From Nemophila menziesii (taxonomy: Eukaryota; Streptophyta; Magnoliopsida; Boraginales; Hydrophyllaceae), in assembly GCA_029959085.1 (NCBI GenBank), contig JARWIR010000047.1:5208001-5272000 (forward strand): a stretch of 64,000 bases of DNA. The letters are read 5' to 3'. The position numbers were made by a program, and so were the translations under genes. Shown piece by piece: positions 1,691-59,459 of the stretch (the stretch's first letter is position 1; every line of letters begins with the position of its first letter). The notes below the pieces were generated by a model. That model was given only the letters and a program-made list of their open reading frames with translations. It was not told the origin of the DNA and did not search any database.

Positions 1691-1734
1691 TCATATCGTT
1701 TACTCTACTAACGATTAAGATACCGTAGATTTAT

Positions 1735-19286: not shown

Positions 19287-19972
19287 TTATGATTTGTAAC
19301 TTATTTTTGTTTAACTGGTAATATAAACTAAATTGTGAATTTCCCATAATTTAGTTTAATTTATTCAATTAAATTTTGTCTAATTACCTGTATGTTCTAG
19401 TTTTAATATAAAAAAAAATATATACAAATTACAATTATAGATATTAATTTTTTTCCAAATTACCTTCATGTATGGAGTATACTCATTATCTTAGTTAAAA
19501 AATGTAATAGATATATGAGCTTGAATTTTGTGTAGATAATTTCTAGATCGCATATTGGGGCGGTGTAGCTTTTAGGACATAATGACCTATAATAATATTT
19601 TGATATCCCAAATGGGTCTTTTTAACGTTCTAAATAATATCACGTTAAAATTTATGTTCATTTTTAAATAACAAATTAGACACTAATATATAAACTTATT
19701 CAATAGATATGTATAATCAAGATATTAAAACCAATTCTTTAAATGGAAAAGTGGTTATGAATGAATTATAATTATAAGTAGTAATTAGAATTTTATAATT
19801 GAGTTGTAATTTCTAACCTTTACTATATTATTCAAAATATCATGATCAACAATTTTTTTATCGGTTTAGAATTATATTTAACGGTAAATTGAAGGAAAAT
19901 AAAACCAATTTAAATTCCATTAATATTAAACTGAATTTATAATTAAAAGTTATATACAATATTAGGTAACTC

Positions 19973-21143
19973 ACATCAGGTAAAAGCCTTGGAAAAGTTA
20001 AGTGTATCTATGCCTTAAAACGATTCTTCAATCCCCTTCCACACAAAATGTTATTGTTCATTCCATGCAAAATGTTACTACTTCTACCATTGCCCGGTTT
20101 GTGTACATATATATATATATACATATACATAGAGAGGTATAGAGAAAAAGGGAGAGATATATCTCTCAATTTGTCATTTATCATAGTTTGCAATGGATAT
20201 CTAAACCCACCCTAAGGAATATAACTTTGGGAACATCTTTAATTTTTATATTTTTTTAACGTCGTCACAAACAATAAACTATGTTTATTTTTAAAATCTA
20301 GAAGTGTTCCCATAAAATGATATATTTACGCGAAAGTGAAATTCATCTAACAAAACCTGATTATTTTTCTCGCCCGGCCCATAGTAGGTAAAGTGCAGGC
20401 CCATTGAGACAGAGTCAAAAGTTTAAATTTCAAATATTTTGACATAATAACGGGAATAAATTTTGTTGAATATATAGCTATTTGTGTAGCAAAAAAACCT
20501 TATATTAAGTAATCTTGTAAGTATAGCATAAATAGAAACTCTTTACCTATTTCACTATTTCTAATCTCTTAATAGATTTTAATCTTCTTCTACTTTCTCC
20601 TACTTCTGTGTTGGGATTTTAGGAATTAGAAATATTTCCAATTCTTCAAATTCCAACACAGAAGTGGGTGAAAGTAGAAGAAGATTAAAATCCATTAAGA
20701 GATTAGAAATGGTGAAAAAGAGTAACGAGCTTATATTTATGCTATACTTACAAGATTACTTTAATATAATTTTTTTCACTACACAAATAGCTATATATTA
20801 AAGAAAATTTATTGCCGTTATTATGTCAAAATATTTAAAATTTAAACTTTTGACTCGTAGTAATTAATGGGCCCAAACTTTACCTACTAGGGGCTGGGTG
20901 TGAAAAACCATCTGGTTTGCTTAAATGCATTTCACTTTTCGTGTGTAAATGTATCATTTAATGGAAAAACTTCTAGATTTTAAAAAAAAACATATACAAA
21001 TTTAAGATGTTACAAAAGTGATATTCTTTTTGTGCGCTTAGATATCCATTTCAAACTATGATAAATGACAGATTGAGAAGGAGATATATCTCTTCCTTCC
21101 TCTCTAAATCTCACTATGTTTATATATATATATTTATATCGAT
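19973..21143 (+). pseudogene. SHH-like fragment a: inverted repeat of homeodomain end and linker, no promoter
   Basis: The left arm starts inside the exon (HQVKALEKLSVSMP) and continues with a stop in place of Q and then NDSSIPFHTK, a TA-microsatellite intron and a block ending TTCTACTTTCTCCTACTTCTGTG. After a centre near 20635 the same sequence returns in reverse complement to about 21143, where the TA repeat ends the right arm. Exons 1-4 and the promoter are missing because the R unit is joined directly to the exon at 19972. This is the shortest-spacer palindrome of the four. The SHH identity rests on the linker block and on the fuller copies. Confidence 0.65.
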
Positions 21144-21457
21144 ATAATTAATGGTCAATATTATATAAATTCGATCCACGGTTTAAAATGTCTTGATATC
21201 CTCTCTATATTTTTCAGCCGTCAGATCTATCTTATATATTTTTTTGAAGTTGAAATCCCTAAATAACTTAACCAATTCTTATCTTTATCTAATTGTAATT
21301 CAAAACTTATATCCTCACATATGTATCGTGTTGAAACAAAAAACATAAAGAAGCCTCTTCTCGCTCACCTTCCCACCAAGTCGTCCGCCTGTACAAGAAA
21401 ACCTTCGCCATTTGACAAACATTCTCCACCACCATCAACCGGCTTAAGTTAAAAACC
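21144..21457. other. Private 0.31-kb insert between palindrome a and R unit
   Basis: No match elsewhere in the window. It follows the TA repeat of the right arm and ends at TTAAAAACC before the next R unit (TTATATTGAATAGTGG at 21458). The minus strand has a 63-codon open frame with a charged middle (WWEGEREEA), but nothing supports it as a gene. Confidence 0.4.
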
Positions 21458-25945: not shown

Positions 25946-25955
25946 CTATATATAA
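25946..25955 (+). promoter_or_regulatory. TATA box of SHH-like fragment b
   Basis: CTATATATAA lies 98 bases before the ATG. The spacing is the same at 35431 (98 bases) and nearly so at 56073 (96 bases), so it is likely the true core promoter element of the parent gene. Confidence 0.6.
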
Positions 25956-26078
25956 AACACCTATTTTTTCTCTTCAATCGAAATATTTCATCCCATAAAC
26001 TAATATAATACACATATTTAACCCTCCATTTCTATAATCGGCTATGGGCAGACCACTAAGCAATGATGTTCAGTCTTT

Positions 26079-26176
26079 CTGCTTCAATTCTGCAGAGGTC
26101 AGTAAATATTAACACATATATATGTAGTACTTCAATTCTGCAGAGGTCAGTAAATATTAACACATATATATGTACA
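26079..26176 (+). repeat. 48-bp tandem duplication containing the exon 1 splice donor
   Basis: The block TTCAATTCTGCAGAGGTCAG plus TAAATATTAACACATATATATG occurs twice, giving donor sites at 26098 and 26146, 48 bases apart. The copy at 35567-35660 has the same duplication (donors at 35583 and 35631); the copies at 45771 and 56169 have a single unit. Confidence 0.85.
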
Positions 26177-26704
26177 TGTTACCCACTAAGCTATTTGAAT
26201 TTCTTTTTAATTTATTAATTAAGTTCCATATTTTGTATATGATTAGCTTAGATGATATTATTTAAATTATTTTATTGTTAACTGAGTTTTTATTTAGTTG
26301 AATTTATGTGATTGAAGCTTATCTATGACTGCTCATACACATGATTTGTGTTGTAAAATATGATAATTTGATTTGATTTTATTCTTCATTTTCAATTAAA
26401 AATTTAAAAAATCAAAGAAAAAATGAGGAATTGGTTATGGTTTGATTTTTATAAGGTATTTCTTGTTATATTTTTATAATTATTTAGTTAAATTATGGTT
26501 TATGATTTTATTGTGGGTATAATTTGCTATTTAGTACAGAAAATGATTTTAAAAAACGTATATTTTTTAGCAAAATTTGTTAATATATGTTGTTTTAAAT
26601 TTTGTGGGTATGTGTTTAAAGTACAAATTAGGTGACTAAATTTAGGCCAAATTTCTTCGCTCAAGAGGGTTTGGGTTTTGAAGGTTTTGCGAGTTAATTG
26701 CATT

Positions 26705-33700: not shown

Positions 33701-35109
33701 AGACTTGCGCCTCTCAAACCTCACTAACCCTATCCAGTCAAGAATTATTTCGTATTGTATCTTGTTCTCAAAAACATAATTCTTTAGTAACTTTAACTAA
33801 TAAAAAGAAGTGTCGGGATTAAGAATAATACGGATGCTCTCGATGAATTCTACATTCGTAACACAAAGCAATTTCCAATACCAATCTCTTTACAAATATC
33901 ACAAATTGATCATGCAAAAGATATCATGTATGTTGTTTCATTTAAACATTATTTAGTGATTAAAATAGTATTTAATATATTTTGTCTAAGTATTTTCATA
34001 TAACGTACGTAATCTCTTCCTTTAAATATCTATCTGATATGTATAATATTGACCATGAAACATATGTGGTCAATGTATTCTACCAAAGTAGATTATGGTT
34101 GAACTATAGATATTTAAGATGATTTATTTTGAAATTAAGACTAAGATATGAAACAAATAAGATATATTTGGCAAACAAATTACAATGTTTGATTAATAGG
34201 GGTGTTATCCAATTTTTTTTTGTGTTGACAAGAGTAATATGGTTGTCGTAGGTATTGAATCAATATATTTACAGGCCCAGATAATATTTTATCTGATCCA
34301 TAACAATAATTTAGGGAAGCCAATGACTTAATTTTTTAAGCGTACTAATTATGTGTTTGTTTGGAAAAGCCTCAAACAAGGGTTGCTCTACCCCTAACCC
34401 TAAATAATGGAATGATTATGATTTGTAACTTATTTTTGTTTAAGTATTAATATAAACTAAATTATGAATTTCGTACAATTTAGTTTAAATTATTTAAATA
34501 AATTTTGTGTAGTTACCTGTATATACTAGTTTTAATACAAAACAAAAAATTTACAAATTACAATTATATGTATTAATTTTTTTACAAATTACGTTAATGT
34601 AAGGAGTATACTTATTATCTTAGTTACAAAATTTAATAGATATAGGAACTTGAATTTTGTGCAGATAAAATTCTAGCCCGCATATTAGTGTGGTGTAGCT
34701 CTTAGGACATAATGACCTATAATAATATTTTGATAAACCAAATGGTTAATTTTAACTCAAACACGGTTCTAAATAATATCATGCTAAAATTAATGTTCAT
34801 TTTTAAATAACAAATTAAACACTAATATATAAACTTGTTCAATAGATATGTATAATCAAGATATCGAAGCTAATTCTTTAAATGAAGAAGTGGTTATGAA
34901 TGAATTATTATTATGAGTAGTAATTAGAATTTTATATTTGAGTTTTAATTTCTAACCTTTATTATATTATTCAAAATGTCATGATCAACAATCTTTTTAC
35001 CGGTTTAGAATTATATTTAACTGTAAATTGACAGAAAATAAAACAAATTTAAATTCCATAAATATTAAATTAAATTTATAATTAAAAGTGATATACAATA
35101 CTAGGTAAC
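30764..35109 (+). repeat. Young R unit, copy 3
   Basis: Co-linear with copies 1 and 2. Differences: a frameshift in the ATTGATAAAAAATTGACTG stretch near 33508, loss of about 90 bases near 34290, and stops in the small frames. Followed directly by the SHH-like promoter. Confidence 0.6.
33370..33627 (+). pseudogene. Unrecognised membrane-anchored protein trace, R unit copy 4
   Basis: MGASHDGINELVVIDYI is followed by a one-base frameshift (GATAAAAAATTG), after which DGFYVYKLRPIMREKNKE continues in another frame and ends at the TAA corresponding to 24086-24088. It is inactive relative to the copy at 23823. Confidence 0.3.
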
Positions 35110-35430
35110 TCCCCAAATAGACCTTGAACTGTATTTTAATATTAACATTTGTTAATCAAACTTGATATTAGACAAGAAGTATTCGGTGCACTTCATTAAA
35201 CAACTTCTAGGTATATAGTTACACAAATTATGCTATTTCTTCACAAGACGAAATTTCCCTTGAAACCATCAAATCTCTCATTTATCATAAGTCATGGACT
35301 GTTAACTCTCTTTTTTTGGATTATACCGCCAAATGTCCAAAAAAACGGCCCAAAACATTAAAATTACAAGAATACCTGAATACGTAGCCAACATGATTCA
35401 GTCCAATTATCAAATTCCACAATCTACCCA

Positions 35431-35440
35431 CTATATATAG
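35431..35440 (+). promoter_or_regulatory. TATA box of SHH-like pseudogene c
   Basis: CTATATATAG, 98 bases before the ATG at 35529, embedded in a roughly 400-bp upstream region shared by all four promoter-bearing fragments. Confidence 0.55.
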
Positions 35441-36194
35441 AACACCTATTTTTTCTCTTCAATCGAAATATTTCATCCCATAAACTAATATAATACACAT
35501 ATTTAACCCTCCATTTCTAAAATCTGCAATGGGCAGACCACTAAGCAATGAAGTTCAGTCTTTCTGCTTCAATTCTGCAGAGGTCAGTAAACATTAACAC
35601 ATATATATGTACTGCTTCAATTTTGCAGAGGTCAGTAAATATTAACACATATATATGTGCAGGTTACCCACTAAGCTATTTGAATTTCTTTTTAATTTAT
35701 AAAATAATTTCCAGATTTTGTATATGATTAGCTTAGACGATATTATTTAAATTATTTTATTGTTAATTGAGTTTTTATTTAGTTGAATTTATGTGATTGA
35801 AGCTGATCTATGACTGCTCATACACATGATTTGTATTGTAAAATTTCATAATTTGATTTGATTTTATTCTTCATTTTCAATTAAAAATTTGAAAAATCAA
35901 AGAAAAAAGGAGGAATTGGTTATGGTTTGATTTTGATAAGGTAGATCTTGTTATATTTTTAAAATTATTTAGTTAAATTATGGTTTATGATATTATTGTG
36001 GGTATAATTTGTTTTTTAGTAAAGAAAATGATTTTAATAAACTTATATTTTTTAGCAAAATTCGTTAATATATGTTGTTTTAAATTTTGTGGGTATGTGT
36101 TTAAAGTACAAATTAGGTGATTAAATTTAGGCAAAATTTCTTCGCTCAAGAGGGTTTGGGTTTTGAAGGTTTTGAAGGTTTTGCGAGTTAATTG

Positions 36195-36420
36195 CATTTT
36201 AGGTCCCCATTTTTTTCAAACATACATATTGGACTTATATTTCGTAAAAATACATTTTAAATCCCTACATTTTGTAAAAATGCATTAAAGGCCCTATAAA
36301 ATTTAAAAAATGCACTATATGTCCCTATATTACACAAATAATTTTTTTACCATGAATTGCACTATATCCCTATATTATGTAAAAATATATATTCAATAAA
36401 TTTGAGGACTTTAAATTCAA
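36195..36420 (+). repeat. Imperfect short tandem repeats at the end of intron 1
   Basis: Units of roughly 40-50 bases with a core such as AAAAATGCAnTnnAGGTCCC or TATATGTCCCTATATTAnnn follow one another. They recur at 46375-46580 and 56765-56960 in the same intron position. The phrase resembles the 3580-5270 repeats and is probably a dispersed plant minisatellite. Confidence 0.45.
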
Positions 36421-36544
36421 GAGATAAGGATTTATTTATTCTCAAAATTAAGGTATACTTGTAATTTGTTTAAAGGTGTCAAAGGTTGAAGCTGTCCTAC
36501 AAGCACATAGCTTGCTTCAAGTGTATGGTCGAGAAATTCTATTA

Positions 36545-38465
36545 GCTCTTGTTAAGAATTTTAGGTATGTGACAATACAATATTTTTAACTTTCTTATAT
36601 AATTCATACTATCAAAACACTTGGTAATTATGTTCATCTTCTTGTTTAGCTTGAAACCTGACAGAATATGAAACGTGGTTCAATATAAGCAGGTTAGTTA
36701 TATTTTTCATTTAAAGTAATTATAATTGTGCTATATTTATATGTTTATATATAATTAATTATGATATTATTTAGTAAATATAAATTTTATTATTACACGT
36801 TTATTACTGGTTTAATAATAAGAATTATATAAGAGCAAAAGTATCAGGTAAATGTCTTGGAAAAGTTAAGTGTATATATGCCTCAAAACGATTCTTCAAT
36901 CCCCTTCCACACAAAATATTATTGTTCATTCCATGCAAAATATTACTGCTTCTACCATTTCTCAGTTTGTGTATATATATACATATACATAGAGAGGTAT
37001 AGAGAGAAAGGAAGAGATATATCTATTTCTCGGTCTTTCATTTATCATAGTTTGCAATGGATATCTAAGCCCACACTAAGGAATATCACTTTGGTAACAT
37101 TTTTTATTATTATATTTTTTTACATTGTCACAGACATTAAACGATGTTTATTTTTTAAATCTAGAATGGTTTCCATTAAATTATACATTTACACGCGAAA
37201 AGTGAAATTCATTTAACAAAACAAGATTGTTTTTCTCACATGTCCCATAGTAGGTAAACTGCAGGCCCATTAATTGCGAGAAAGTCAAAAGTTTAAATTT
37301 CAAATATTTTGACATAATAATGTGAATAATCTTTTTTGAATATATAGCTATTTGTGTAGCGAGAAACATTATATTAAAGGGATCATGTAGGCATAGCATA
37401 AATAGAAACTCTTTACTTATTTCATTAGTTCTAATCTCTTAATAGATTTTAAACCTTTTCTACTTTCTCTTACTTCTGTGTTGGAATTTGTGGAATTAGA
37501 AATATATAGTAGATATTATTAGGAGATATTTCCAATTCTTCAAATTCCAACACAGAAGTGGGTGAAAGTAGAAGACGATTAAAATCCATTAAGAGATTAG
37601 AAATGGTGAAAAAGAGTAAAGAGTTTATTTTTATGCTATACTTACAAGATTACTTTAATATAATTTTTTTCACTACAGAAATAGCTATATATTAAATAAA
37701 ATTTATTGCCGTTATTATGTCAAAATATTTGAAATTTAAACTTTTGACTCGTCGCCGATTATTGGGCCGACACTTTACCTACTACAGGTTGGGTGTGAAA
37801 AACCATCTGGTTTGGTTAAATGAATTTCACTTTTCGCGTGTAAATGTATCATTTAATGGAAAAACTTATAGATTTTAAAAAAACAAACATATACAAATGT
37901 AAGATGTTACCAAAGTGATGTTTCTTTTTGTGAGCTTAGATATCAATTGCAAACTATTATAAATGACATATTGAGAAGGAGACATATCTCTTCCTTTCTC
38001 TCTAATTCTCACTATGTATATGTATATATACATAAATATATATATATATATATGTAAACGAGATATGATACCTTTAATTGTAGTAGTAACATTTTGCATG
38101 TAAGGAACAATAATATATTGTGTGGAAGGGGATGGAAGAATCTTTTTGAGGCATAGATATACTTAACTTTTCTAGTGCTTTTATGTGATTATTTTGCTGT
38201 TACATTAAATCTTCGATTTTGAAACCATTAATTAACGTGTAATAAAAAAATTTAAAATTACGAAATAATATCATAATCAATGATATATATAAATATAGCA
38301 CAATTATCGTTAATTTAAATGAAAAAAATCATTAATTTGCTTATAATGAATCAGCTGCCGAGCTAAACAAGAAGATGAACATTATTACCAATGGTTTTGA
38401 TAGTAAGAATTATATAATAAATTTAAATATATTGTCTTGTCACATACGTAAATTTCTTAGCATGT
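36545..38465. repeat. Long inverted repeat c: SHH-like exons 3-5 and introns mirrored
   Basis: The left arm (36545-37500) and right arm (37535-38465) are reverse complements with short indels, separated by only about 35 bases. Checks: GTATGTGACAA at 36565 against TTGTCACATAC at about 38443; intron 2 block ATGTTCATCTTCTTGTTTAG against its mirror at 38365-38384; the TA-microsatellite at about 36974 and 38036; and AATTCCAACACAGAAGTGGG at 37543 against its mirror near 37480. By eye the arms are about 85% alike. The right arm lost about 18 nt of exon 3. Confidence 0.85.
38210..38227 (-). other. WFQNRR homeodomain helix-3 signature on the palindrome's right arm
   Basis: On the minus strand these six codons read TGG TTT CAA AAT CGA AGA, i.e. 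WFQNRR, the DNA-contacting helix-3 signature shared by nearly all homeodomains. The forward copies at 46982 and 57370 have TAG for TGG and G for the first R. This is the strongest sequence support for the homeodomain call. Confidence 0.8.
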
Positions 38466-38690
38466 CTATAAGGATATGTGTAGCTTCTCACCTCTCCTCA
38501 AATCAATGCTACACCTCGACTGACATGCTGGATTTATTAGATGGGTGGTGCCTTACCGCACCGCAAGCTAGTGGAAACGATACGCCAACACGAAAAAGAG
38601 GAGTGGCTTGGAAACCGAAAGAGTCATTCAAAAATGTAAATTCTCTTGAAGCTGGAAAGACTAATAATTACCTATTAACATGAATTCACT
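38466..38690 (+). pseudogene. Unrecognised exon fragment X, copy 1
   Basis: It follows the palindrome's right arm. The frame includes SHLSSNQCYTSTDMLDLLDG, then TPTRKRGVAWKPKESFKN. The copy at 48641-48830 ends ESFKK at a GTAAATTC donor-like site. The conserved core T-R-K-R-G-x-x-W-K-x-K-E-S-F-K is basic and would suit a DNA- or RNA-binding tail, but I do not recognise it. It is followed at once by decayed element A sequence in the opposite orientation. Confidence 0.35.
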
Positions 38691-39522: not shown

Positions 39523-40231
39523 GGTGAGGCTTAGAGCAAGATAGAGTGTTGTAGATGGGTTTTAGATTGACTTAGAAAAGGATTTTTGAAGGAAGAAGAT
39601 GAAATGGGTGATTTATAGAGAAGGAGAGTAGAATGAGAAGAAAAGAGGTTAAAAGTGTTGAAAAATCATTCTTTGGCGATTCGTGAAAGGTATGCCACTC
39701 CTACGGCCGGTATGTCGATCAGTAAAAACCTGAAAAAAATATTATCACGTCGGCCGCCACTCATACAGTCCGTATGTCGCTCATATCTCGGCGTAGGAAC
39801 TAGAAAATGAAATTTTTTTCTTTATCAAAAGTACCTGAAACCAAGTCGAAGACTCCCCAATAGATTGAGATTTTTCAAAAATCCCTAAAAATATTTATTT
39901 TTTGAAAAGTATAAATTAGAGAGACAAAATTAGAAGAAAATATTTTTTTCCAAAAAGGTCCTAACAATTTCTAAAAAAGACAAAAAGACCAATATAAGGA
40001 CGAAACAATATCAAACACTATAACTAAGAAAAGGATAAGAATACTAACACATAGGAGAAAAATGTTATCCAACAAATTATGCAAATAAAAAAAGATAAGG
40101 ATAAAAATAACCACGATTTTCCTTTGACGTGATTTGAACATCCTTTAGAATATCATTTATTTTTTAACGCTCATTACATATAAACACAACAAGAAATTTA
40201 AGGTATCCGAAGTAGAGTGGATCTGAGGGGA

Positions 40232-41060
40232 TTAAAGTTGTTTGTGATAAAAACATGTAGAGACACGATGACTGACTTTTCCGAAATAGGTGTAAAAACA
40301 TACATTGTGTTGAGGAAAATGAGGAAACGATTTTAAACATAATTTTTTCTCATTAGTTTGTTTTACCAAAATTTCACTCCAAGATAATTTTTTTTCAAGA
40401 AATCTAAATTTAGTTAAAGGAGTAAAATTTAGATTAGGATGATTTTCAATGATTTTAAAAATGATTGAGCAAGTATCATCCACCTTTTTAAAAGCTAAGA
40501 CATTTTCTTTAAAGAGATTTTTGTTTTCATCAAAAGAGAAAATTCGTTCAAATTTTTTTTTCATTGTTTCACATAATTTCATCTAAGGTTATTTGAGAAC
40601 GATGAAATTGAGAAGGGATGCGATATACTTGTTATCATGATAATCATAAAAAAATGACAATGAGTTGTGATAGAGTACCTCATGTTGATTTTGAATTATC
40701 ATGACTTTCATCACCGTTTTTGCTTTCATCTTTTCCAATATCTACAATCCACTATAAGTACTCCAAATGATCCCAAATTTCTTTTGCCGAATCATATTCT
40801 AATAATATTATTCTAAACATGTCTTCAGATATTTAACATATTAAACTATACATGGCTTTGCGCTATGGGTGAGTTTAGCTTTATCATCGTCGGTAAGTTC
40901 ATCTTCTTCCTTTATCGATTGAGTTAACACATGAACTCCACATTAATTGATTTTCTATTGGTATGGCATAAATGGACCTTCTATAACAATTCTCTAAAGA
41001 TCGGGATAATAGAGTTTCATAAATTCTTCCATTCTTCTACCGCAAGCATAAGATTAAATT
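40232..41060 (-). pseudogene. Copia-type gag remnant of element A, copy 5
   Basis: An open stretch at 40582-40232 reads MKLCETMKKKFERIFSFDEN, KNLFKENVLAFKKVDDTCSI and then KTNEKKLCLK-type blocks, ending in CFYTYFGKVSHRVSTCFYHK. The zinc knuckle keeps its histidine and last cysteine but has F for the second cysteine. Upstream blocks (LYG..., DPDLW) are broken by frameshifts between 40600 and 41060. Confidence 0.6.
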
Positions 41061-41103
41061 TCATATCGATTACTCTACAAACGATTAAGAACCGTAGAGT
41101 TAG

Positions 41104-41115
41104 TCTATGATACCA
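41104..41115 (-). promoter_or_regulatory. Primer-binding site, element A copy 5
   Basis: Minus strand TGGTATCATAGA, two mismatches from the initiator tRNA-Met complement TGGTATCAGAGC, at the LTR border. Confidence 0.7.
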
Positions 41116-42600
41116 ATTAAATCCCCTAGAGAGGGTGAATAGGATAATAAAATAATTAAGGCCTAATTAAATTTTTTAGACAATTATAAGTTTGAAGAAA
41201 AAATTCTAAGTCAATATATATAAGACTCTTATATGATCATGCAAGAGATAACTAGAGATTTGATATAAAAGTAATACGATCATTCAATATACGATAAGTA
41301 ATGAGACAAGGGATAAAAAGTACACAATGATGTATAGTGGTTCAGTTATCCCTACTCAAATACCTAAGGTAACCACCTTAGGATTTTCAAGCTTCTTAAC
41401 TTTGCTTTTCTGTTTCTCTTAACCGGGGTGAGTACACAATAATCTTACAACCACTTCGATACCACGAAGCAAACTCTTGTTCTATATAATTACAAGGAAA
41501 CTGAGCATGTTCTATATACTCACACTCTCTATTTATCTTACTGTTACAAAGACTAGACTTAAGACAATATAAGCAAGTATTTGATGGGTTGAAATAACTT
41601 AGCTAAGAACTCCTAAATAGTAGATATAACTTTAAACTTCAAAACTTCACTTGAGTGGATTGGAATTTTGATTTTTCTAGGATTAATTCATTGATTCAGT
41701 TAATATGACAAGTTTAATGATCAAGCTTGGATTTCTAAACTTTAATAGTTTGAGACATCTAACGGATAAATAAACTTGTAATAGTTGTGTTGTTAAGAGG
41801 TAAGATATTTCACATCAATAATCTCTCTCCTATACCCAACTTTCTACCTTTGTCCAGTATACTCAAAGACTTTATCTTCTTATCCAACAGGCGAAATCCA
41901 ATGTGGCATGTGACCGTTGGATAACGGCTACCACAGACAAGCCGAGCACCGTTATGCCAGTCTGATTTTGAAAAGTAAGCTTGAAACGATTGTTAAAGTG
42001 AGTTAAAATGCATATATATATAAGAAAATATGTTATGTGTAATGCATTATCTATGGGATATTAAAATACTATATTAAAAATATGAAAATAAGATTAAAAG
42101 GACGTTAAGCCAACAAACAGATATTCATGTAATTTAATTGTGAATGCAATATGGTTAACAAATGTTAAAACCCTAAAGATTGCATATAATATCGTTGGTT
42201 TAGTCAAAATTTAACATACGACCGTTTTTGCTTGAGCTCGGTGCTCTTGCAGTATAGATGTTTCCAGAAAAATAAAAAATAATCAAATTTAAAATAACAA
42301 AATAAAGTATGCAAGAGATAAAATAATTATTTACATTAGAATAGCTTTATATAACATTCAAATAAGATCAAGATCATTCATATATTTAAATTACCATCTT
42401 GTGAAAAATAGTATAATAAGTACGAAGTTTTAGTATTATATGCACTAATATATAATTGATGGGGTTTATTATCATATTGTTATTTATTAATATTCAAAAC
42501 TGTGTCTAATATTTTTTAACTCTTTTTGATGGTTAATTGAGTTCATTATCATACTACTATTGTTTTGTTTAGTTAATATTTCAACTCATATATAACACAC
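41116..42600 (-). repeat. LTR of element A, copy 5 (about 1.48 kb)
   Basis: Homologous throughout to 51312-52797 and 1747-3192. On the minus strand it would begin TGTGTTATATATGAG at 42600; the plus strand ends ATATATAACACA, consistent with a TG...CA end, and different sequence (element B) follows. Confidence 0.6.
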
Positions 42601-42759
42601 TGAAAGAGAACGAATGGGCCCATGTATATTGATTCATTTAAAACGCTATGTAATAATTAAATTAGTATTTAATATCTTTTGACAAATTATTTGTCAAATT
42701 ACATACTTAATATTTTTCTTTAAATATCTATCGGATATGTATTCGATTAACAATGATCG

Positions 42760-43960
42760 TTATTTTTTAGGTACAATAAAAAATACACCATGTCCAATCT
42801 TATAATTAAAACCTAAATTATCTACTCTACTAACAAAAACAAGATTTCTAGCTCATTCGGGTACATGAAGACACCCTTCAAGATCTACATGACAACCGGT
42901 CTGCAAGATCAATCTATAAGCCCCAATGCCTTAAATTCGCGCCTTCCTCATATTTTCCATGACAAGTACTATTTAGATCCTCTTATAGGCCAGATCAAAC
43001 AGAACCCCTGTTCAATATGAGACAATGAGTAGTAGCACTAGAATCTAACCATAAGGTATTGTTAGTCAATTCTATAAGATTTAACAGAGCAAACAAACTA
43101 TGATTGTTACCTATCTTATCGAAGCATGCCTTCCTTTTCAAACAATCTTTCTTGAAGTATCCCATTTTCTTGCAAAAGAAACATTTGATTTCTTTACTTA
43201 TTTTATTTTCAGGCCTTTTAAAAAAACTCTTATCCTTCCTTTTACCATTTTTTCTGGGTCTTGCCATACTGTTGATGGCTCATTCAAGACCTACGAGATT
43301 AACAACTTTTGTCGTTTAACTTATTTAATCTCACTTCTTCTTCAATCAGCATAACCTTCAATCCTGTAAGGTTCCATTATCAGCAATGGTGTTGTAGTTC
43401 ACCTGGAACTGGCTAAACTGATGAGGTAGAGAGTTCTTAATAAATTTGACCAAGAATTGTTCGTGAACTTCCATTCCCAGGGTCGTTAACTACGATACCG
43501 AGTTTGACATGTGTCACATGATCACAGATTGACTAAGACCAGTCATATTTCTTTGTAGAAAGCTCACTCATAAGACTTCCTACAATAGACTTACCAGACA
43601 AATCTGATTGTGAACACTCCTTAATCGCTTTAATGAATTCCCTTGTATTTTCTATCTTGGGAATTGATTGTTTAATACTTTTCTCCATCGAAATCTTCAT
43701 GAGATTCAAGCTATGTCTATTTAATCGCTCCCAAATCTCAAGACGAAATTAGTCAACATCATAACTATCATCTATAATGGCTGGTGGTTTTCATCAGAGA
43801 GGTTGCAAAGTCCAACGACATTACACAAAGAGTAAACTTGATTTGATCAAACTATTTACCATGATTAAGCCCATTGAACTTCATGTCAGATCTAGCAGAT
43901 GCAATTTATACATCCTTATCTATTAGTGCTTTAAAAAAATTAATACAGATTCATAATATA
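42760..43960 (-). pseudogene. Gag-protease remnant of copia element B (TNT1-like), copy 1
   Basis: Minus frames give MKFNGLNHGK, WERLNRHSLNLMKISMEKSI, IENTREFIKAIKECSQSDLS, GSLMSELSTKKYDW, MEVHEQFLVKFIKNSLPHQF and QFQVNYNTIAD: the classic copia UBN2 gag order, with FIxNSLPxQFxxFxVNYNT as the signature. An open stretch at 43267-42995 carries the zinc knuckle CFFCKKMGYFKKDC (histidine replaced by Y) and the protease entry LWLDSSATTH (DSGA changed to DSSA). Further traces (DLEGCLHVPE, LGFNYKIGHGVF) run to about 42760. Many stops; not functional. Confidence 0.75.
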
Positions 43961-44720
43961 TATTATCTATTGGAAATTTATAGCATATATTTAAGCAACA
44001 TTTGATCAATACTTAAACATGTACACGTTCAGTGATACAAAAACAAAATTAACAATTAATCAAATCAACCATAAATCAAATAACCATGCAACCTTTTCAT
44101 AGTACATGTCATTGGCTAGTAAGAAATGATTAATACTGTTTATGTTACTAATTATATTCAATGATCTACCTTAGGGTGATCTTCAAAAATATAACTAAAA
44201 AACAATTGATCAATATAATGGATTATGTAATTTATGCATAAGTTAATCACGATCAATCATTAAAAAAAATTCATTTTTTTAATAATTGAATTATAATATA
44301 ACAAGTCCACTTTGGTGACAAACATGTTAATTACAAAAAAAAAAGATATTAAAACTTTTCATGGGTAAAATGATTTCATATTGTGTTAGTATTTCATAAA
44401 CACAATTACCCCAAAACGTAAAACATCCAAATCTTTAAGGTAATTATAGACATAATTCATCATAGTTAAATAAATATGACACAATTCTATATCACAGATC
44501 AAAAAAATTATAATGTGTAAGGGCATTGATAATGAAGTCATTACGTAATCATTAAACTTAATCAAAGTTTTATATTATCAATGAATTTAGATAATGAATT
44601 TTAATATTTAGTATTTAAAACGTAATGACTAAATACATAAATTTACCGGAAAAACATTATCAATACTATAACCTATTTTAAAGAAACATAATAATCGGTA
44701 AATTAAATAGATCTAGATGG

Positions 44721-44732
44721 ACTCTAATATCA
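44721..44732 (-). promoter_or_regulatory. Degenerate primer-binding site, element B copy 1
   Basis: Minus strand TGATATTAGAGT, three mismatches from TGGTATCAGAGC, next to a TG dinucleotide that would be the inner end of the LTR (44735 on the plus strand). Confidence 0.5.
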
Positions 44733-44734
44733 AT

Positions 44735-45412
44735 TGTTAATCAACTGTTATTTCTATATCATTATATAATTCACCCGTAACTAATTTAAAAAATAATAAT
44801 AGAAAAATACTAACCTTGATCCATTGATGAAGATTATTAGTATAAATTAATTCAGTAATTAAATTCATCTTTCCTTTGACCTCTTTCTTTAAATAATCCT
44901 TTTAACGGATAAATGATTAAAATCTAATTTAGTGATTTAATTACTTTTGTATTTAGTCATTATAACCTTAGGTTTTCTTATTTTGTATGAAGATTGAAAA
45001 ATGTGTTTCTTTATGTAATGACAATGATGATAATTTTATATCCAGTTGTGACGGTTACTTAAACGATATAGTATTAACAGACTTATTTTATTTTCACTTC
45101 TAACCTCGTCATGTATCATCATTCTTTACTTATCATCATTCTCAATTTAGAAGAATAAAGAAATATCTTCTTATAACGGTTATAGAAGGAATACCAAAAT
45201 TATAATTCTTTAATTGAATTTAGCCTATCATATTATCGTCTTTTATATTATAATCTTCAACATATAATATAAACTAGGACTTTACTATTAATTCGTTAGA
45301 CACATATGTCGCATAAAAATAAAAATATTCTAACAAGAACATCTTCCATTAATTTTAGGACATGAAATTAAGGAGAAGTTACAGTTATCAAAACTTAGTA
45401 AAATCTTTTAGT
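44735..45412 (-). repeat. Probable LTR of element B, copy 1
   Basis: Lies between the PBS-like site and the SHH-like promoter region. Matches 54933-55614. The plus strand begins TGTTAATCAACTG; the outer end is not sharply defined, since SHH homology resumes at TTAGTATTGGACAAG near 45408. Confidence 0.45.
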
Positions 45413-47836
45413 ATTGGACAAGAAATATTTGGTACACTTCATCCAAAAACTTCTAAGGATATAGTTACACAGATTATGCTTTTTTTTCACAAGACGAAAT
45501 TTCCCTCTAACCATCAAATCTCTTATTTATAGTAAGTCATGGACTGTTAACTCTTTTTTTAAATGTTGGATGATACCGCCAAATGGCCAAAAAGAAATAG
45601 CTCAAAACATTGAAATTAAAATAATACCTGAACAACTTAATCCAGCCCATTTATCAAAACCTACAATCTGTACACTATATATAGAACACCTATTTCTTCT
45701 CTTCATTCTAAATAGTTCATCCAATAAACTAATATAATATATCTTTAACCCTCCATTTCTATAATCTGCTATTGGCAGACTCCGTCTTTCTACTTCAGTT
45801 CTGCAGATATTAGTAAATATTAACACATATATGTACAGTTTACCCACTAAGCTATTTGAATTTTTTTTTAATTTATTGAATAATTTCCCTATTTTGTATA
45901 TGATTAACATAGAAGATTTTACTTATAATTTTTTATTGTAAATTGAGTTTTTATTTAGTGAAATTATGTTATTGAAGCTGATCTATGACTGCGCATACGT
46001 ATGATTTGTATTGTAAAATTTCATAATTGGATTTAATTTTTTTCTTCATTTTTGAATTTCTTGGGGTGGGTCTGTAATTAGAAATTCGAAAAACCAAAGA
46101 AAAATAGAGGAATTGGGTATGGTTGGATTTTGATAAGTTAGATCGTGTTATCTTATTAAAATTATGGTTTATGCTTTTATTGTGTGTATTAATTTGAGAT
46201 TTAGTAAAGAAAATGGTTTTAAAAAACTTATATTTTCTAGCAATTTTTTTTAATATGTGATAGTTTAAATTTTGTTGGTACGTGTTTAAAGCGCAAACTA
46301 GGTGACTAAATTTAGGCAAAATTTCTTTGCTGAAGAGGGTTTGGCTTTAGGGTTTTGAAGGCTTTGCGAATTAATTGTAGGTCCCTATATTTGTCAAAAA
46401 TACAGATTGGACTTATATTTTGTAAAAAAACATTTTAAATTACTACATTTTTCAAAAATGCATAAAAGGTCCCTACAAATTTACAAAAATGCACTATATG
46501 TTCCTATATTACACAAATTATTATTTTCCAATGAATCACACTAGAGATCCCTATATTATGCAAAAATAACTTATATTCAATAAATACGAAGACTTTAAAT
46601 TCAACAAATTAGGATTTATTTATTCTCAAAATTAAGATATACTTGTCATTTATTAAAAGGTGTCAATGGTGGAAGCTGTGCTACAAGCACACACCCTTCA
46701 AGTGCCTGGTCACGAAATTCTATCATATCTTCTTCAGAAATTAAGGTATGTGACAAGACAACATATTTAACTTTCTTATATAATTCTTACAATCAAAATC
46801 CTTGGTAATAATGTTCTTCTTCTTGTTTAGCTTGAAACCTGAAAGAATTGGAAATGTGGTTCAGTATAAGCAGGTTAATGATATTTTATTCATTTAAAGT
46901 AATTATAATTGTGCTATATTTATATGTTTATATATAATTGATTATCATATTATTTTGTAAATATAAATTTTACTATTACAGGTTTATTACTAGTTTCAAA
47001 ATGGAAGATTCATACCTGAGCAAATGCATCAGGTAAAAGCCTTGGAAAAGTTAAGTGTGTCTATGCCTCAAAAGGATTCTTCAATCCCCTTCTATACAAA
47101 ATATTATTGTTCATTCCATGCAAAATGTTAATCCTTCTACTACAAGAACCATTGCTCGGTTTGTGTATATATATATATATATACATACATAGAGAGGTTT
47201 AAAGAGAAAGGTAGAAATATATACCCTTCTCAATCTGTCAGTTATCATAGTTTGCAATGGATATCTAAGCGCACCCTAAGGAATATCACTTTGGTAACAT
47301 CTTAAATTTATATATTTTTACATCGTCACAAACATTAAACTATGTTTATTTTTAAAATCTAGAAGTGTTTCCATAAAATGATACATTTACACGCGAAAAG
47401 TGAAATTCATATAACAAAACAAGATTGTTTTTCTTACTTGTCCATAGTAGGTAATGTGTTGGCCCAGGTAAAGTGTGGGCCCAATCAAAAGTTTAAATTT
47501 CAAATATTTTGATATAATAACGGGAATAAATTTTGTTGAATATATAGCTATTTATGTAGCGAAAAAACATTATATTAAACTAATCTTGTAAGTATAGCAT
47601 AGAAAGAAACTATTTAATTATTTCACCATTTCTAATCTCTTAATGGATTTTAATTTTCTTCTACTTTCACCCATTTCTTTGTTGGAATTTGAGGAATTGG
47701 AAATATCTTTTTTTGTTATCAACTTGTTATAATTTTTTTTATTGATTTAGATATCTAAAGAATACTTTATATTGCTATTTTTGTTTGGTAAATTTAATTA
47801 AAATCTGACTTTTGGGTGATTATTTTGCTGAACCAG

Positions 47837-47946
47837 GTGCATCTAAGACTACAACTACAACTGAAAGTGAAAGTGAATCTAGGTATGGTTTCACAATGGA
47901 GTTTGAAGCTAGATCTTCTAGAGATGGTGCATTGTTAGTATTTTGA
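47837..47946 (+). pseudogene. SHH-like exon at SAWADEE-domain entry, forward copy
   Basis: After a TTTTGCTGAACCAG acceptor the exon reads GASKTTTTTESESESRYG, then FTMEFEARSSRDGALLVF and TGA. In SHH proteins the MEFEAxSxRDGAWYDV block opens the SAWADEE domain; here the frame diverges right after DGA, so the chromatin-reading tandem fold is missing. Confidence 0.6.
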
Positions 47947-47982
47947 ATTATTAGAGACTAATAATAGTTAAGATTAGGAAAG

Positions 47983-48174
47983 TTAAAATATTATACATCC
48001 ACTATCTCTATCAGATCTAGCTTCAAACTCTATTGTGAATACATCCCCATATTCACTTTCACTTTCAGTTGTAGTTGTAGTTTCAGACGCACCTGCTTGA
48101 GCTAAATAATCACCTAAAAATAAGTTTTTAATTAAATTTACCAAATCAGAAATTGCAAAATCACAAGTATTCAT
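47983..48174 (-). pseudogene. SHH-like exon at SAWADEE-domain entry, mirrored copy
   Basis: Minus strand: an acceptor-like CTCAAGCAG is followed by GASETTTTTESESEYGD and VFTIEFEARSDRDSG, then a stop near 47983. It remains open from 48174. It differs from the forward copy at several codons (E for K, EYGDV for ESRYG), so the two arms have evolved separately for some time. Confidence 0.6.
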
Positions 48175-48640
48175 TAGATCTCCAGATCACTCATAAAAGT
48201 AAAAATAATAGAGAAAAATGATCAAACTAATATATCTGTTCCGCTTTGACAAAAATCTAAAAGTAACAAAATTTTATAAAAAATTGACATAAGAAAAAGA
48301 TATTTCAAATTCCTCAACTTCCAAACCAGAAGTCGGTGAAAGTAAAAGAAGATTAAAATCCATTAAGAGATTAGAAATGGTGAAAAAGAGTAACGAGTTT
48401 CTTTCTATGCTATACTTACAAGATTACTTTAATATAATTATTTCACTACGCAAATAGATATATATTCAACAAAATTTATTGATGTTACTATGTCAAAATA
48501 TTTAAAATTTAAACTTTTGGCTTGATGCGATTAATGGGCCCACACTTTACCTACTACAGGCCAAGTGTGAAAAACCGAGGATTTTGATAGTAAGAATTAT
48601 ATTATAAAATTAAATATATTGTCTTGTCACATACATAAAT

Positions 48641-48830
48641 TTTTTAGCACTTCTTTAAGGATATGTATAGCTCCTCACCTCAATGCTACACTTTGACTAA
48701 CACGCCGCAGTTGGTTGCTAGGTGGTTCCTTAACACACCGCAAGTTGGCGCAAGCGATGCGCCGACACGGAAAAGAGGACTGGTTTGGAAAGCAAAAGAG
48801 TCATTCAAAAAGGTAAATTCACTGTATTTT
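48641..48830 (+). pseudogene. Unrecognised exon fragment X, copy 2
   Basis: Reads SSPQCYTLTNTPQLVARWFL, NTPQVGASDAPTRKRGLVWK and AKESFKK before a GTAAATTC donor-like sequence. It matches 38466-38690 and marks the junction of the 10-kb tandem duplication. Not recognised. Confidence 0.35.
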
Positions 48831-51250: not shown

Positions 51251-51299
51251 TAAATTTCATATCGATTACTCTACAAACGATTAAAAACCGTAGAGTCAA

Positions 51300-51311
51300 G
51301 CTATGATACCA
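51300..51311 (-). promoter_or_regulatory. Primer-binding site, element A copy 6
   Basis: Minus strand TGGTATCATAGC, one mismatch from the initiator tRNA-Met complement, at the LTR border. Confidence 0.7.
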
Positions 51312-55990: not shown

Positions 55991-57127
55991 AAAACAAATA
56001 GCTCAAAACATTGAAATTAAAAGAATACCTGAACAATTTAATCCAGCCCATTTATCAAAACCAATCTGTACACTATATATAGAACACCTATTTCTTCTCT
56101 TCATTCTAAATAGTTCATCCAATAAACTAATATAATATATCTTTAACCCTCCATTTCTATAATCTGCTATGGGCAGACTCCTGTCTTTCTACTTCAGTTC
56201 TGCAGATGTCAGTAAATATTAACACATATATGTACAGTTTACCCACTAAGCTATCTGAATTTTTTTTTAATTTATTGAACTATTTCCCTATTTTGTATAT
56301 GATTAACTTAGACGATCTTACTTATAATTTTTTATTGTAAATTGAGTTTTTATTTAGTGGAATTATGTTATTGAAGTTGATCTTACTTATATGATTTGAA
56401 TTGTGAAATTTCATAATTGGATTTGATTTTTTTCTTCATTTTTTAATTTCTTGGTGTGGGTCTGTAATTAGAAATTGGAAAAACCAAAGAAAAATAGAGG
56501 AATTGGGTATAGTTGGATTTTGATAAGGTAGATCGTGTTATCTTATTAATATTACGGTTTATGCTTTTGTTGTGTGTATTAATTTGAGATTTAGTAAAGA
56601 AAATGGTTTTAAAAAACTTATATTTTCTAGCAATTTTTTTTAATATGTGATAGTTTAAATTTTGTGGGTATGTGTTTAAAGTGCAAACTAGGCGACTAAA
56701 TTTAGGCAAACTTTCTTTGCTGAAGAGGGTTTGGCTTAAGGGTTTTGAAGGCTTTGCGAGTTAATTGTAGGTCCCTATATTTGTCAAAAATACAGATTGG
56801 ACTTATATTTTGTAAAAAAACATTTTAAATTTACTATATTTTTTAAAAATGCATAAAAGGTCCCTAAATTTAAAAAATGCACTATATGTCCCTATATTAC
56901 ACAAATTATTATTTTCCAATGAATCGCACTAGAGATCCCTGTATTATGCAAAAAAAACCTATATTCAATAAATACGAAGACTTTAAATTCAACAAATTAG
57001 GATTTATTTATTCTCAAAATAAAGATATAATTGTCATTTATTAAAAGGTTTCAATGGTTGAAGCTGTGCTACAAGCACACACCCTTCAAGTGCCTGGTCA
57101 CGAAATTCTATCATCTCTTGTTAAGAA

Positions 57128-58590
57128 ATTAAGGTATGTGACAAGACAATATATTTAACTTTCTTATATAATTCTTACTATCAAAATCGTTGGTAATAAT
57201 GTTCTTCTTCTTGTTTAGCTTGAAACCTGACAGAATTGGAAATGTGGTTCAGTATAAGCAGGTTAATGATATTTTATTCATTTAAAGTAATTATAATTGT
57301 GCTATATTTATATGTTTATATATAATTGATTATGATATTATTTTGTAAATATAAATTTTATTATTACAGGTTTATTACTAGTTTCATAATGGAAGATTCA
57401 TACCAGAGCAAAAGCATTAGGTAAAAGCCTTGGAAAAGTTAAGTGTATCTATGCCTCAAAATGATTCTTCAATCCCCTTCTACACAAAATATTATTGTTC
57501 ATTCCATGCTAAATGTTACTCCTTCTACTACAAGTACCATTGCTCGGTTTGTGTATATATATATATATATAAACATTCATAGAGAGGTTTATAGAGAAAG
57601 GTAGAAATATATACCCTTCTCAATCTGTCAGTTATCATAGTTTGCAATGGATTCTAAGCGCACACTAAGGAATATCACTTTGGTAACATCTTAAATTTAT
57701 ATATTTTTACATCGTCACAAACATTAAACTATGTTAATTTTTAAAATCTAGAAGTTTTTCCATAAAATGATACATTTACACGCGAAAAGTGAAATTCATT
57801 TAACAAAACAAGATTGTTTTTCTTACTCGTCCATAGTAGGTAATGTGTTAGCCCAGGTAAAGTGTGGGCCCAATCGTTGCGACATAGTCAAAAGTTTAAA
57901 TTTCAAATATTTTGACATAATAACGGGAATAGATTTTGTTGAATATATAGCTATTTATGTAGCGAAAAAACAATATATTAAAGTAATCTTGTAAGTATAG
58001 CATAGAAAGAAACTCTTTAATTATTTTACCATTTCTAATCTCTTAATGGATTTTAATTTCATTCTACTTTCACCCATTTCTGTGTTGGAATTTGAGGAAT
58101 TGGAAATATCTTTTACTGGTACCAACTTTTTATAATTTTTTTATTAATTTATATATCTAAAGAATACTTTATTTTGCGATTTTTGTTTGGTAAATTTAAT
58201 TAAAATCTGACTTTGAAAGTGAAAGTGAATCTAGGTATGGTTTCACAATAGAGTTTTAAGCTAGATCTTCTAGAGATGGTGCATTGCTAGTATTTTGAAT
58301 TATTAGAGACTAATAATAGTTAAGATTAGGAAAGTTAAAATACTATACATCCACTATCTCTAGCAGATCTAGCTTCAAACTCCATTTTGAATACATCCCT
58401 ATATCCACTTTCACTTTCAGTTGTGATCTCCAGATCACTCATAAAAATAAAAATAATAGAGAGAAATGATCAAACTAATATATCTGTTCCACTTTGACAA
58501 AAATCTAAAAGTAACAAAATTTCATAAAAAATTGATATAAGAAAAAGATATTTCAAATTCCTCAAATTCCAAACCAGAAGTCGGTGAAAG
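57128..58590. repeat. Inverted repeat e, right arm truncated
   Basis: The left arm (57128-58305) mirrors only 58325-58590: the SAWADEE-entry exon and the block CAAATTCCAAACCAGAAGTC. At GGTGAAAG (about 58590) the right arm stops and unrelated sequence begins (ATTATGAATAAATGTG), so this palindrome keeps only about a quarter kilobase of paired sequence. Confidence 0.7.
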
Positions 58591-59459
58591 ATTATGAATA
58601 AATGTGAAAATTAACAAGGAGAGAATTAGAGATGAATTAGGAAAATAGCTGAAAAGAGGATATAGGGAGATATTTTTTGATTTTGGTATATATTGACATT
58701 TAGTGAGATAATGAGATGGTCTTGTTCGAGTTTATATATTATTCTGGTAAGTGTGTACTTTTGGAGTATTTATTTTAAGAAGTAGACTAAATTAGACTCT
58801 TATTTTTATTAAATGTTAGCATACATTTTTGAATATTTTTATATATATAAGTTTTATAAGTTCACCATTCACTTTATTTCACTACACTTATTCTTTATTA
58901 TTTTACTTTTAAAATCTTTCAGCATCCATTCTCAACAACACTTTTTCTTCTAAGAAAACCAACTTATTTTTCTTTTTCTTAAGTTTTGAAGACATTATTC
59001 TTTTCAATTCTCTTCTTCTCTTTGGAACTCCACCTTTTATGGAAGCACCATTATTTGGTTGAAGTATCAAACAAAATTTCAATTGTGAAGTCCATCTATG
59101 ATGCAGCTGCAAGACCTTTTCTTTGAAAATAATGTGAGTGAATGTGTCCTAGAACTTGAGTGAATAATTTATTGCGATGGCTCTAGTTACAAAAAACAAG
59201 AGGTGACGGTCGTCGAACAAGTATATTGTTTGGTGAGGTAAATTGTAATATGAGGCTTGTTGAAGGATTAATATTTACATATTAATTCAATTATACACAA
59301 ACATGGTAAAGATTATGTAAAATTACATAATTAACCTTGATGAGTATTTAAAAGCATATCAAAAAAAATATTTGTTACTACAAAATTTAAACTATATAAT
59401 TAATTATTAAAGTAATACAAATTACTATATTATTGACATATTAATAATTTGTATCTCCT
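58591..59459. other. Non-repeated stretch after the last SHH copy
   Basis: No match to other parts of the window. It includes a pyrimidine-rich tract (about 58860-59040) and a minus-strand open frame with a lysine/arginine-rich middle (58909-59112), for which I see no support as a gene. Nothing else recognised. Confidence 0.4.

What the first reader, a model, noticed from the sequence alone, without database searches (positions are those of the whole stretch)
36545..38465. Near-symmetric 1.9-kb palindrome made of SHH-like exons and introns
Arms of about 0.9 kb with only about 35 bases between them. Both carry exons 3-5, intron 2 and 3 sequence and the TA microsatellite. A promoter and exon 1 of the same gene lie upstream in the right orientation. 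Transcription through it would give a long imperfect hairpin RNA homologous to an RdDM gene.
Basis: partly seen in the sequence, partly recalled or inferred. Interest (0 to 1): 0.8.

Follow-up and report, generated by a model that had tools for sequence, protein, structure and literature searches.

The report
Decaying gene palindrome in plant array
A broken copy of a plant chromatin gene was once duplicated head-to-head into a long palindrome, which was then multiplied in an array; its RNA could still fold into a hairpin, but the two halves now drift apart independently, so it looks more like a relic than a working silencing device.

Summary
The palindrome is real: arms 36546-37510 and 37521-38466, 83.8% identical over ungapped columns. 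It is not unique: its left arm recurs at 19 places in ~319 kb of one contig of a 1.5-Gb plant genome. Of 16 read, 14 have both arms. The 12 that keep the outer end of the right arm share one junction, and a tree groups left arms, right arms, and both together. So one inverted duplication of an SHH2-like gene (end of exon 2 to just past exon 5, 39-bp spacer) arose once and was then amplified. The finding's copy later lost the palindrome tip, exon 5 included. The parent is SHH2-type, in Arabidopsis a SWI/SNF subunit; 'RdDM gene' is insecure. RNA folding gives a strong imperfect hairpin and a TATA-type promoter is retained, so hairpin siRNAs are possible. Signs of selected function are weak or missing: no compensatory changes among sister copies, exons not better conserved than introns against the reference paralogue, stops in 14 of 15 copies read, no exact exon 21-mer to the most intact paralogue (some to others). 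Best reading: a neutral, decaying inverted-repeat pseudogene array. Expression and small RNAs could not be tested.

The parts
35238..35528 (+). 5' region homologous to that of a full-length SHH2-like paralogue; TATA-like CTATATATAG at 35431-35440
   Evidence: blastn to reference gene ref33; CTATATATA also in the upstream sequences of ref33, L031, L032, L035, C and L038 printed
35529..35582 (+). exon 1 (MGRPLSNEVQSFCFNSAE), donor GTCAGT
   Evidence: tblastn with 120 SHH2 proteins; exon projection
36476..36564 (+). exon 2 (homeodomain part), one extra codon relative to the reference
36546..37510 (+). left palindrome arm: end of exon 2, intron 2, exon 3, intron 3, exon 4, part of intron 4; collinear with the gene
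36650..36692 (+). exon 3 with in-frame stop (LKPDRI*NVVQYKQ)
36799..36955 (+). exon 4 remnant (WFQNRRY region, one codon missing; its later reading frame differs from that of L031)
37506..37525 (.). centre of the palindrome; relative to the full-form copies L040 and L041 about 300 bp on each side plus the spacer are missing here
37521..38466 (-). right palindrome arm, inverted copy of the same gene segment
38068..38236 (-). right-arm counterpart of exon 4 (WFQNRRFNVTAK* at 38165-38227)
38337..38362 (-). right-arm counterpart of exon 3 (shortened)
19972..21148 (.). copy A: palindrome truncated at both outer ends, same central deletion as the finding's copy
46732..48653 (.). copy C: keeps the original centre (exon 5 sequence in both arms, 39-bp spacer); most of the right arm deleted internally
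57115..58595 (.). copy D: left arm and original centre, only the inner part of the right arm

Best explanation
One copy of an amplified SHH2-like gene suffered a single fold-back (head-to-head) duplication of the segment from the end of exon 2 to 11 bp past exon 5, with a 39-bp spacer; the gene is broken there, and the copies read show no later exons (junction and tree shown; template switching as the route inferred). The broken, palindromic gene was then copied with its flanks by tandem segmental duplication; its left arm is found at 19 places. Individual copies were later trimmed: the group with the finding's copy lost the palindrome tip almost symmetrically, as expected if an extruded hairpin tip is cut off (inferred); another group lost the middle of the right arm. 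The arms now drift much like neutral DNA. The locus most likely has no evolved function; any transcript from the retained promoter would fold into a mismatched hairpin and could be diced as a by-product (inferred).
For: Same outer limit of the right arm, reference 1780-1783, in the 12 copies that keep it, and the same junction sequence in the seven printed, one with a small gap. Same inner limit, 3084-3086, in full-form and right-arm-deleted copies. Tree of 30 rows: left arms one group (100/99), right arms one group (100/99), both together against the five full-length genes (100/100). A stop in the projected frame of exon 3 or 4 in 14 of 15 copies; L046 is the exception. Left-right identity within a unit 84.31% (n=14) against 84.22% between units (n=177); in the six pairs of four sister units, 10 column-by-pair cases changed in both arms, 0 compensatory. 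Random re-pairing of arms within subgroups matches the true pairing or does as well in 12 of 24, 6 of 6 and 6 of 6 arrangements; the fourth subgroup has only two arrangements, the true one better. Of 80 private changes in the sister units 61 break a pair, 7 restore one, 12 do neither, and the partner followed in 0. Arm exons are 80.5% identical to ref33, introns 84.7%.
Against: Over all units, quartets show a slight within-unit excess (73171 against 73050 matched sites; 49 positive, 23 negative, 14 zero of 86), and 197 of 695 cases changed in both arms keep pairing, uncorrected for shared ancestry. Private changes break slightly fewer pairs than blind expectation, 61 against 67.2, not tested formally. 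Against L031 the arms' exons 3 and 4 (73-82%) are closer than introns 2 and 4 (59-70%), and against L035 exon 5 (88%) is closer than intron 4 (84-86%); the pooled test used ref33 only. The core promoter motif is kept in the C301 copies printed, B, C and L038. Absence of selection on pairing does not exclude small-RNA production. Several full-length paralogues (L034, L036, ref33) also carry stops, so lesions alone do not set the array apart.
Confidence: 0.74

Rival explanations
1. Hairpin-siRNA source: transcription from the retained SHH2-like promoter runs through the palindromes, dicer-like enzymes cut the imperfect hairpins, and the siRNAs silence or methylate the array itself and the SHH2-like paralogues on C323 and C1, as with PAI1-PAI4 or OGI.
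For: Strong predicted hairpins in the full-form and tip-deleted copies folded (B, L037, L039, L040, L041; shuffles only for B); perfect duplex runs of 38, 35, 22 and 21 bp in B; promoter motif retained. Many exon 21-mers of paralogues lie within 2 mismatches of B (20 for L031, 32-77 for the other non-C200 genes), and 10 of 13 palindromes, B included, share at least one exact exon 21-mer with some paralogue; L038, of B's own subgroup, shares 4-6 with each of L030, L032, L034 and L035. Engineered hairpins with 1 mismatch in 4 gave some RNAi in 33 of 33 lines, 10 strong; with 2 in 10, 28 of 41 strong and 13 almost none (PMC9263138, section 6 part 1 of 2); B has about 1 mismatch in 6 plus indels.
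Against: No compensatory changes in the sister units; exonic parts not better conserved against ref33; 0 exact 21-mers to exons of L031 in all 13 palindromes; no exact match of 19 nt or more between B and the C200 SHH2 locus. In the engineered hairpins the antisense arm matched the target perfectly, which is not so here. Right-arm-deleted copies fold less (C 505 of 1214, D 157 of 1183, L044 531 of 1253 left-arm bases paired to the right side). No RNA data.
Confidence: 0.2
2. Transposable fold-back element or MITE that carries gene pieces.
For: Near-complete palindrome with a short spacer; many copies.
Against: The left arm is collinear with the gene up to its promoter region, so nothing was inserted at its outer end; the arms are ordinary introns and exons; the copies on C301 share junctions and flanks as segmental duplicates; among the 51 places listed none outside C301 has an opposed partner nearby.
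Confidence: 0.02
3. Assembly artefact or chimeric fold-back read.
For: The array reaches to about 12 kb from the end of its contig, and repeats of this kind are hard to assemble.
Against: A fold-back artefact should give nearly identical arms (established knowledge); these differ at 16% of ungapped columns. Fourteen copies with separately diverged arms, most of them in a coherent tree.
Confidence: 0.02

Closest known systems
PAI1-PAI4 inverted repeat, Arabidopsis Wassilewskija (PMC3203196, passages)
   Same: Inverted repeat of a duplicated gene family with an upstream promoter and unlinked singlet paralogues.
   Different: PAI1-PAI4 is a tail-to-tail repeat of two genes, shown to be transcribed and to feed low levels of sRNAs; here the arms are 84% identical gene fragments in an array, and expression is unknown.
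OGI, persimmon (PMC7048303, passages)
   Same: Duplicated copy of a homeodomain gene turned into an inverted repeat.
   Different: OGI is Y-encoded and represses MeGI through small RNA; here sex linkage, small RNA and target effect are unknown. The homeodomain families differ (HD-Zip I against SHH).
ARR17 partial inverted repeats, Populus euphratica sex-linked region (PMC9636151, passages)
   Same: Inverted partial copies of a gene with a predicted hairpin.
   Different: There, mostly 24-nt reads map to the inverted segments S1 and S2; here there are no read data and matches to the most intact paralogues are poor.
Inverted-duplication origin of plant MIRNA genes (PMC3237417, passages)
   Same: Starts from an inverted duplication of a gene or pseudogene.
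   Different: No miRNA duplex is known here; no Rfam family reached its gathering score in the window.
Large sex-chromosome palindromes, willow W (PMC7023750, passages)
   Same: Palindromes with several arms and multi-copy genes.
   Different: Four willow arms share a 20-kb stretch at more than 99% identity on average, with gene conversion shown for part of it; these arms are about 1 kb and diverge freely.

Membership tests
PAI/OGI/ARR17-type gene-silencing inverted repeat | Inverted repeat made of fragments of a gene that has more intact relatives elsewhere | tested here: met
PAI/OGI/ARR17-type gene-silencing inverted repeat | Near-perfect 21-24-nt matches to transcribed parts of an intact target | tested here: inconclusive
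   B: 0 exact exon 21-mers to L031 (minimum 2 mismatches), 1 to L034; L029 minimum 6 mismatches for B, over exons 1-3 only (190 nt). Of 13 palindromes, 10 share 1-7 exact exon 21-mers with at least one of ref33, L030, L032, L034, L035, L036; none with L031 or L029. Whether those targets are transcribed is unknown
PAI/OGI/ARR17-type gene-silencing inverted repeat | Small RNAs from the arms and an effect on the target | not testable with these tools
   No RNA or methylation data
PAI/OGI/ARR17-type gene-silencing inverted repeat | Evidence that pairing or target match is maintained (my added criterion, not a published definition) | tested here: not met
   small contrary signals are told in the Against line
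MIRNA gene | Known family or precise miRNA/miRNA* foldback | tested here: inconclusive
   No Rfam match at gathering thresholds in the window; a new MIRNA would need small-RNA data
Fold-back transposon or MITE | Insertion with target-site duplication at unrelated places | tested here: not met
   Left arm collinear with the gene; shared junctions and flanks; opposed arms seen only on C301 among the 51 listed places
SHH2-type pseudogene | SHH2-type exons with disabling lesions | tested here: met
   Exons 1-4 recognised; stop in exon 3 of B; 14 of 15 copies carry a stop in exon 3 or 4; family nearer SHH2 than SHH1
Gene-converted ampliconic palindrome | Arm-to-arm identity kept high by conversion | tested here: not met
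   Within-unit arm identity 84.31%, between-unit 84.22%

The most novel reading that the evidence does not exclude
An ampliconic hairpin-RNA cluster: an array of diverged SHH2 hairpins (left arm at 19 places) that makes siRNAs policing a parallel amplification of SHH2-like genes on C323 and C1, a plant counterpart of the hpRNA suppressors of drive loci in Drosophila, with a chromatin gene as both source and target. The mismatches in the arms would help the array escape the self-methylation that silences perfect inverted repeats.
Probability: 0.06. Interest if true: 0.8.

Novelty: new member of a known kind. Interest (0 to 1): 0.33.

Why it matters
Full-form, tip-deleted and arm-deleted descendants of a single inverted duplication lie side by side, so the fate of a natural gene palindrome can be read directly. 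It is also a useful counter-example to the idea that a gene-derived inverted repeat with a promoter is by itself a silencing device: structure and promoter are there, but the expected signs of selection are weak or absent. If small RNAs were found, it would become an unusual hairpin cluster against a chromatin gene family.

Tried and rejected
Transposon or MITE origin: rejected (collinear left arm, shared segmental flanks). Assembly artefact: held very unlikely (16% arm divergence, 14 copies, coherent tree). Arm-to-arm gene conversion: rejected as a major force (within-unit identity equals between-unit). Truncated protein from exons 1-5 as the product: unlikely, since 14 of 15 copies have stops in exon 3 or 4. 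Methylation-decay signature: CpG o/e of the 13 palindromes measured is 0.39-0.77 (B 0.74), window 0.64, eight gene loci 0.60-0.88, and Ts/Tv between arms is 0.64 in six units, so no clear deamination excess. Special conservation of the 39-bp spacer: 4.6% pairwise difference against 7.7% in left arms, 8 copies, too little to claim. Species: not identified; among the 120 hits listed for the C200 gene none exceeds 73% identity. Pfam on the 7 ORFs of 110 aa or more: nothing above a curated cut-off. A recount of the array by its original centre and by its flank failed because the genome search did not complete. Recalled, from no call: the substitution rates used for the age; that the 7eez family is maize SHH2 acting with Pol IV; that SHH2 is usually one or few copies per plant; the copia motifs. 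I left the odds as they were, since these mends pull in both directions.

Full report
What is there. The repeat finder lists seven nested arm pairs between 36550 and 38462 at 83-87% complementarity, and blastn matches 36550-38462 to its own reverse complement at 76.8% over 1999 columns including gaps; over 907 ungapped columns the arms are 83.8% identical. The + strand folds at -910.4 kcal/mol against -362.5 +/- 10.5 for 12 dinucleotide shuffles, with 775 of 965 left-arm bases paired to the right arm. Both arms carry TA-rich stretches. The spacer is 10-20 bp rather than 35.

What it is made of. I took the 120 SHH2-type proteins listed by a database search (975 matched) and aligned them to the window. 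Exon 1 is at 35529-35582, exon 2 at 36476-36564, exon 3 at 36650-36692 with an in-frame stop, exon 4 at 36799-36955. The left arm begins 15-19 bp before the end of exon 2. The 5' region from 35238 is homologous to that of a full-length paralogue, and the TATA-like motif CTATATATA stands upstream of exon 1 in B and in ref33, L031, L032, L035, C and L038, the others printed.

It is one of many. The window is a patchwork of tandem segmental duplicates, for example 40231-45598 against 50425-55795 at 94.6%, and holds three more palindrome copies. The window lies at C301:5208001-5272000 of a genome of 1.517 Gb in 361 contigs; the left arm has 51 matches there, a lower bound since 40 of 61 candidates were scored. 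On C301, 19 places in one orientation lie between 5,028,010 and 5,347,014 by my count of that table (5100354 and 5100509 taken as one). I read 16 of these 19: four in the window and twelve fetched. Fourteen have both arms; L046 and L048 show only the left arm. The matches listed on C323 and C1 have no opposed partner nearby.

One origin. Against a full-length SHH2-like gene (ref33, the reverse strand of L033, C1; exon 5 at 2980-3073) the full-form copies L040 and L041 run from reference position 1783/1780 near the end of exon 2 to 3084, 11 bp past exon 5, and back. The spacer between the arms is 39 bp in the eight copies printed and shorter in L040. B, A, L037, L038 and L039 lack the tip: the left arm stops at 2770-2783 and the right arm starts again at 2782-2784, an almost symmetric deletion. 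C, L042-L045 and L047 keep the tip but lack about 1849-2500/2519 in the right arm; D keeps only the inner right arm. The 12 copies that keep the outer end of the right arm end at 1780-1783, and the junction sequence is the same in the seven printed (B, C, L037, L040, L041, L042, L044; L041 with a small gap). In a maximum-likelihood tree of 30 rows, left arms form one group (100/99), right arms one group (100/99), and both together are separated from the five full-length genes (100/100). Rows left out before the tree: D_R, A_L, A_R, L046_L, L048_L (short or one-armed) and L030 (long intron). So the inversion-duplication most likely happened once and the palindrome was then amplified. Jukes-Cantor distances between arms are 0.162-0.183 in B, L040 and L041, which at recalled rates of 0.7-1.5e-8 per site per year is about 5-13 million years.

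Does it look functional? (1) Pairing. If hairpin pairing mattered, or arms were converted, arms of one unit should match each other better than arms of different units. They hardly do: 84.31% (n=14) against 84.22% (n=177). Quartets show a very small excess, 73171 against 73050 matched sites (49 positive, 23 negative, 14 zero of 86). In the four sister units (B, L037-L039) six pairs give 10 cases changed in both arms, none compensatory; over all 14 units 197 of 695 such cases keep pairing, without correction for shared ancestry. Re-pairing arms within subgroups does as well as the true pairing in 12 of 24, 6 of 6 and 6 of 6 arrangements; the fourth subgroup has two arrangements and the true one is better by 4 sites. 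Of 80 private changes 61 break a pair against 67.2 expected blindly, 7 restore one, 12 do neither, and in 0 did the partner follow. (2) Exons. Pooled exonic columns of the arms are 80.5% identical to ref33 (95% 76.9-83.8), intronic 84.7% (82.9-86.5), so exons are not protected. The contrast depends on the yardstick: against L031 exons 3-4 (73-82%) are closer than introns 2 and 4 (59-70%), which may reflect constraint on L031 itself, and against L035 exon 5 (88%) is closer than intron 4 (84-86%). (3) Coding. 14 of 15 copies have a stop in the projected frame of exon 3 or 4. Some full-length paralogues carry stops too (L034, L036; ref33 in exon 4 by reading). (4) Target match. None of 13 palindromes shares an exact 21-mer with the exons of L031, the most intact amplified paralogue; 10 of 13 share 1-7 with some other paralogue (B one, with L034; L038 4-6 with each of L030, L032, L034 and L035); 21-mers within two mismatches are common. 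B has no exact match of 19 nt or more to the conserved SHH2 locus on C200 (L029); L040 has one of 23 nt at the edge of its exon 5.

Which gene? The joined L031 exons score 271 bits against the 7eez chain and 153 against Arabidopsis SHH1 among solved structures. In Arabidopsis SHH2 is a subunit of a SWI/SNF complex and its IP-MS found no RdDM component; SHH1 is the RdDM member (PMC9170682, passages). I recall that maize SHH2 works with Pol IV; that comes from no call. Homology to an RdDM gene is therefore only loosely right.

How it most likely works. Shown: common junctions and tree, amplification, lesions, near-independent decay of the arms. Inferred: fold-back template switching made it, tip cutting of an extruded hairpin trimmed the B group, unequal exchange amplified it. 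If transcribed, it could feed dicers: engineered hairpins with one mismatch in four gave some silencing in 33 of 33 lines (10 strong), those with two in ten strong silencing in 28 of 41 and almost none in 13 (PMC9263138, section 6 part 1 of 2), and mismatched arms escape the self-methylation of perfect repeats (same paper, passages). But in those constructs the antisense arm matched the target perfectly. So a by-product role is possible and a selected role is not supported.

Compared with known systems. PAI1-PAI4, OGI and the ARR17 repeats are the closest working systems; this locus shares their anatomy, but transcription, small RNAs and target effects could not be tested here. Willow W palindromes are kept alike in part by conversion; these are not. 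Drosophila hpRNA suppressors of drive (PMC10618873, passages) inspire the boldest reading. Paper searches joining SAWADEE or SHH2 with inverted repeat, duplication, copy number and tandem, or pseudogene and palindrome listed nothing on such an array; I saw listings and the starts of abstracts, one search listed 10 of 2411, and only the papers named above were opened, as passages or one section.

Noticed in passing
G000 contigs C323:1.47-2.56 Mb, C1:69.10-69.13 Mb, C200, C340, C166, C328, C318, C110, C68, C13: The genome holds many SHH2-like or SHH-related loci: 77 exon-level matches to one SHH2 protein, more than half of them in an array on C323. Several read copies carry stops or frame changes; L031 looks the most intact.
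   Followed up: partly
window 1-64000: The window is largely tandem segmental duplicates, e.g. 15750-19972 against 21457-25638 (87%) and 40231-45598 against 50425-55795 (94.6%).
   Followed up: partly
window 25527-26720: A further promoter plus exon 1 segment, 94% identical to 35000-36203, without exons 2-5 in the piece examined, 25901-26720.
   Followed up: no
window 35564-35659: 48-bp tandem duplication that repeats the end of exon 1 with its splice donor (94% identical).
   Followed up: no
window 42995-43279 (-), 40232-40582 (-): ORFs that by eye look like copia-type gag or protease pieces (recalled motifs); the first was not tested with Pfam, the second gave no family.
   Followed up: partly
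window 38467-38683: Sequence just outside the right arm, open in one frame, recurs beside the other right arms printed; perhaps a piece of another gene.
   Followed up: no
window 47900-48050 (copy C centre): The 39-bp spacer of the original palindrome holds its own small inverted repeat (ATTATTAG/CTAATAAT, by eye); its source was not found apart from a weak partial match in L033.
   Followed up: partly
palindrome arms, several loci: Transversions often outnumber transitions: 573 against 369 between arms of six units, 123 against 92 among sister left arms, 165 against 106 among C-type left arms, 138 against 111 between full-length genes, but 92 against 111 among sister right arms.
   Followed up: partly
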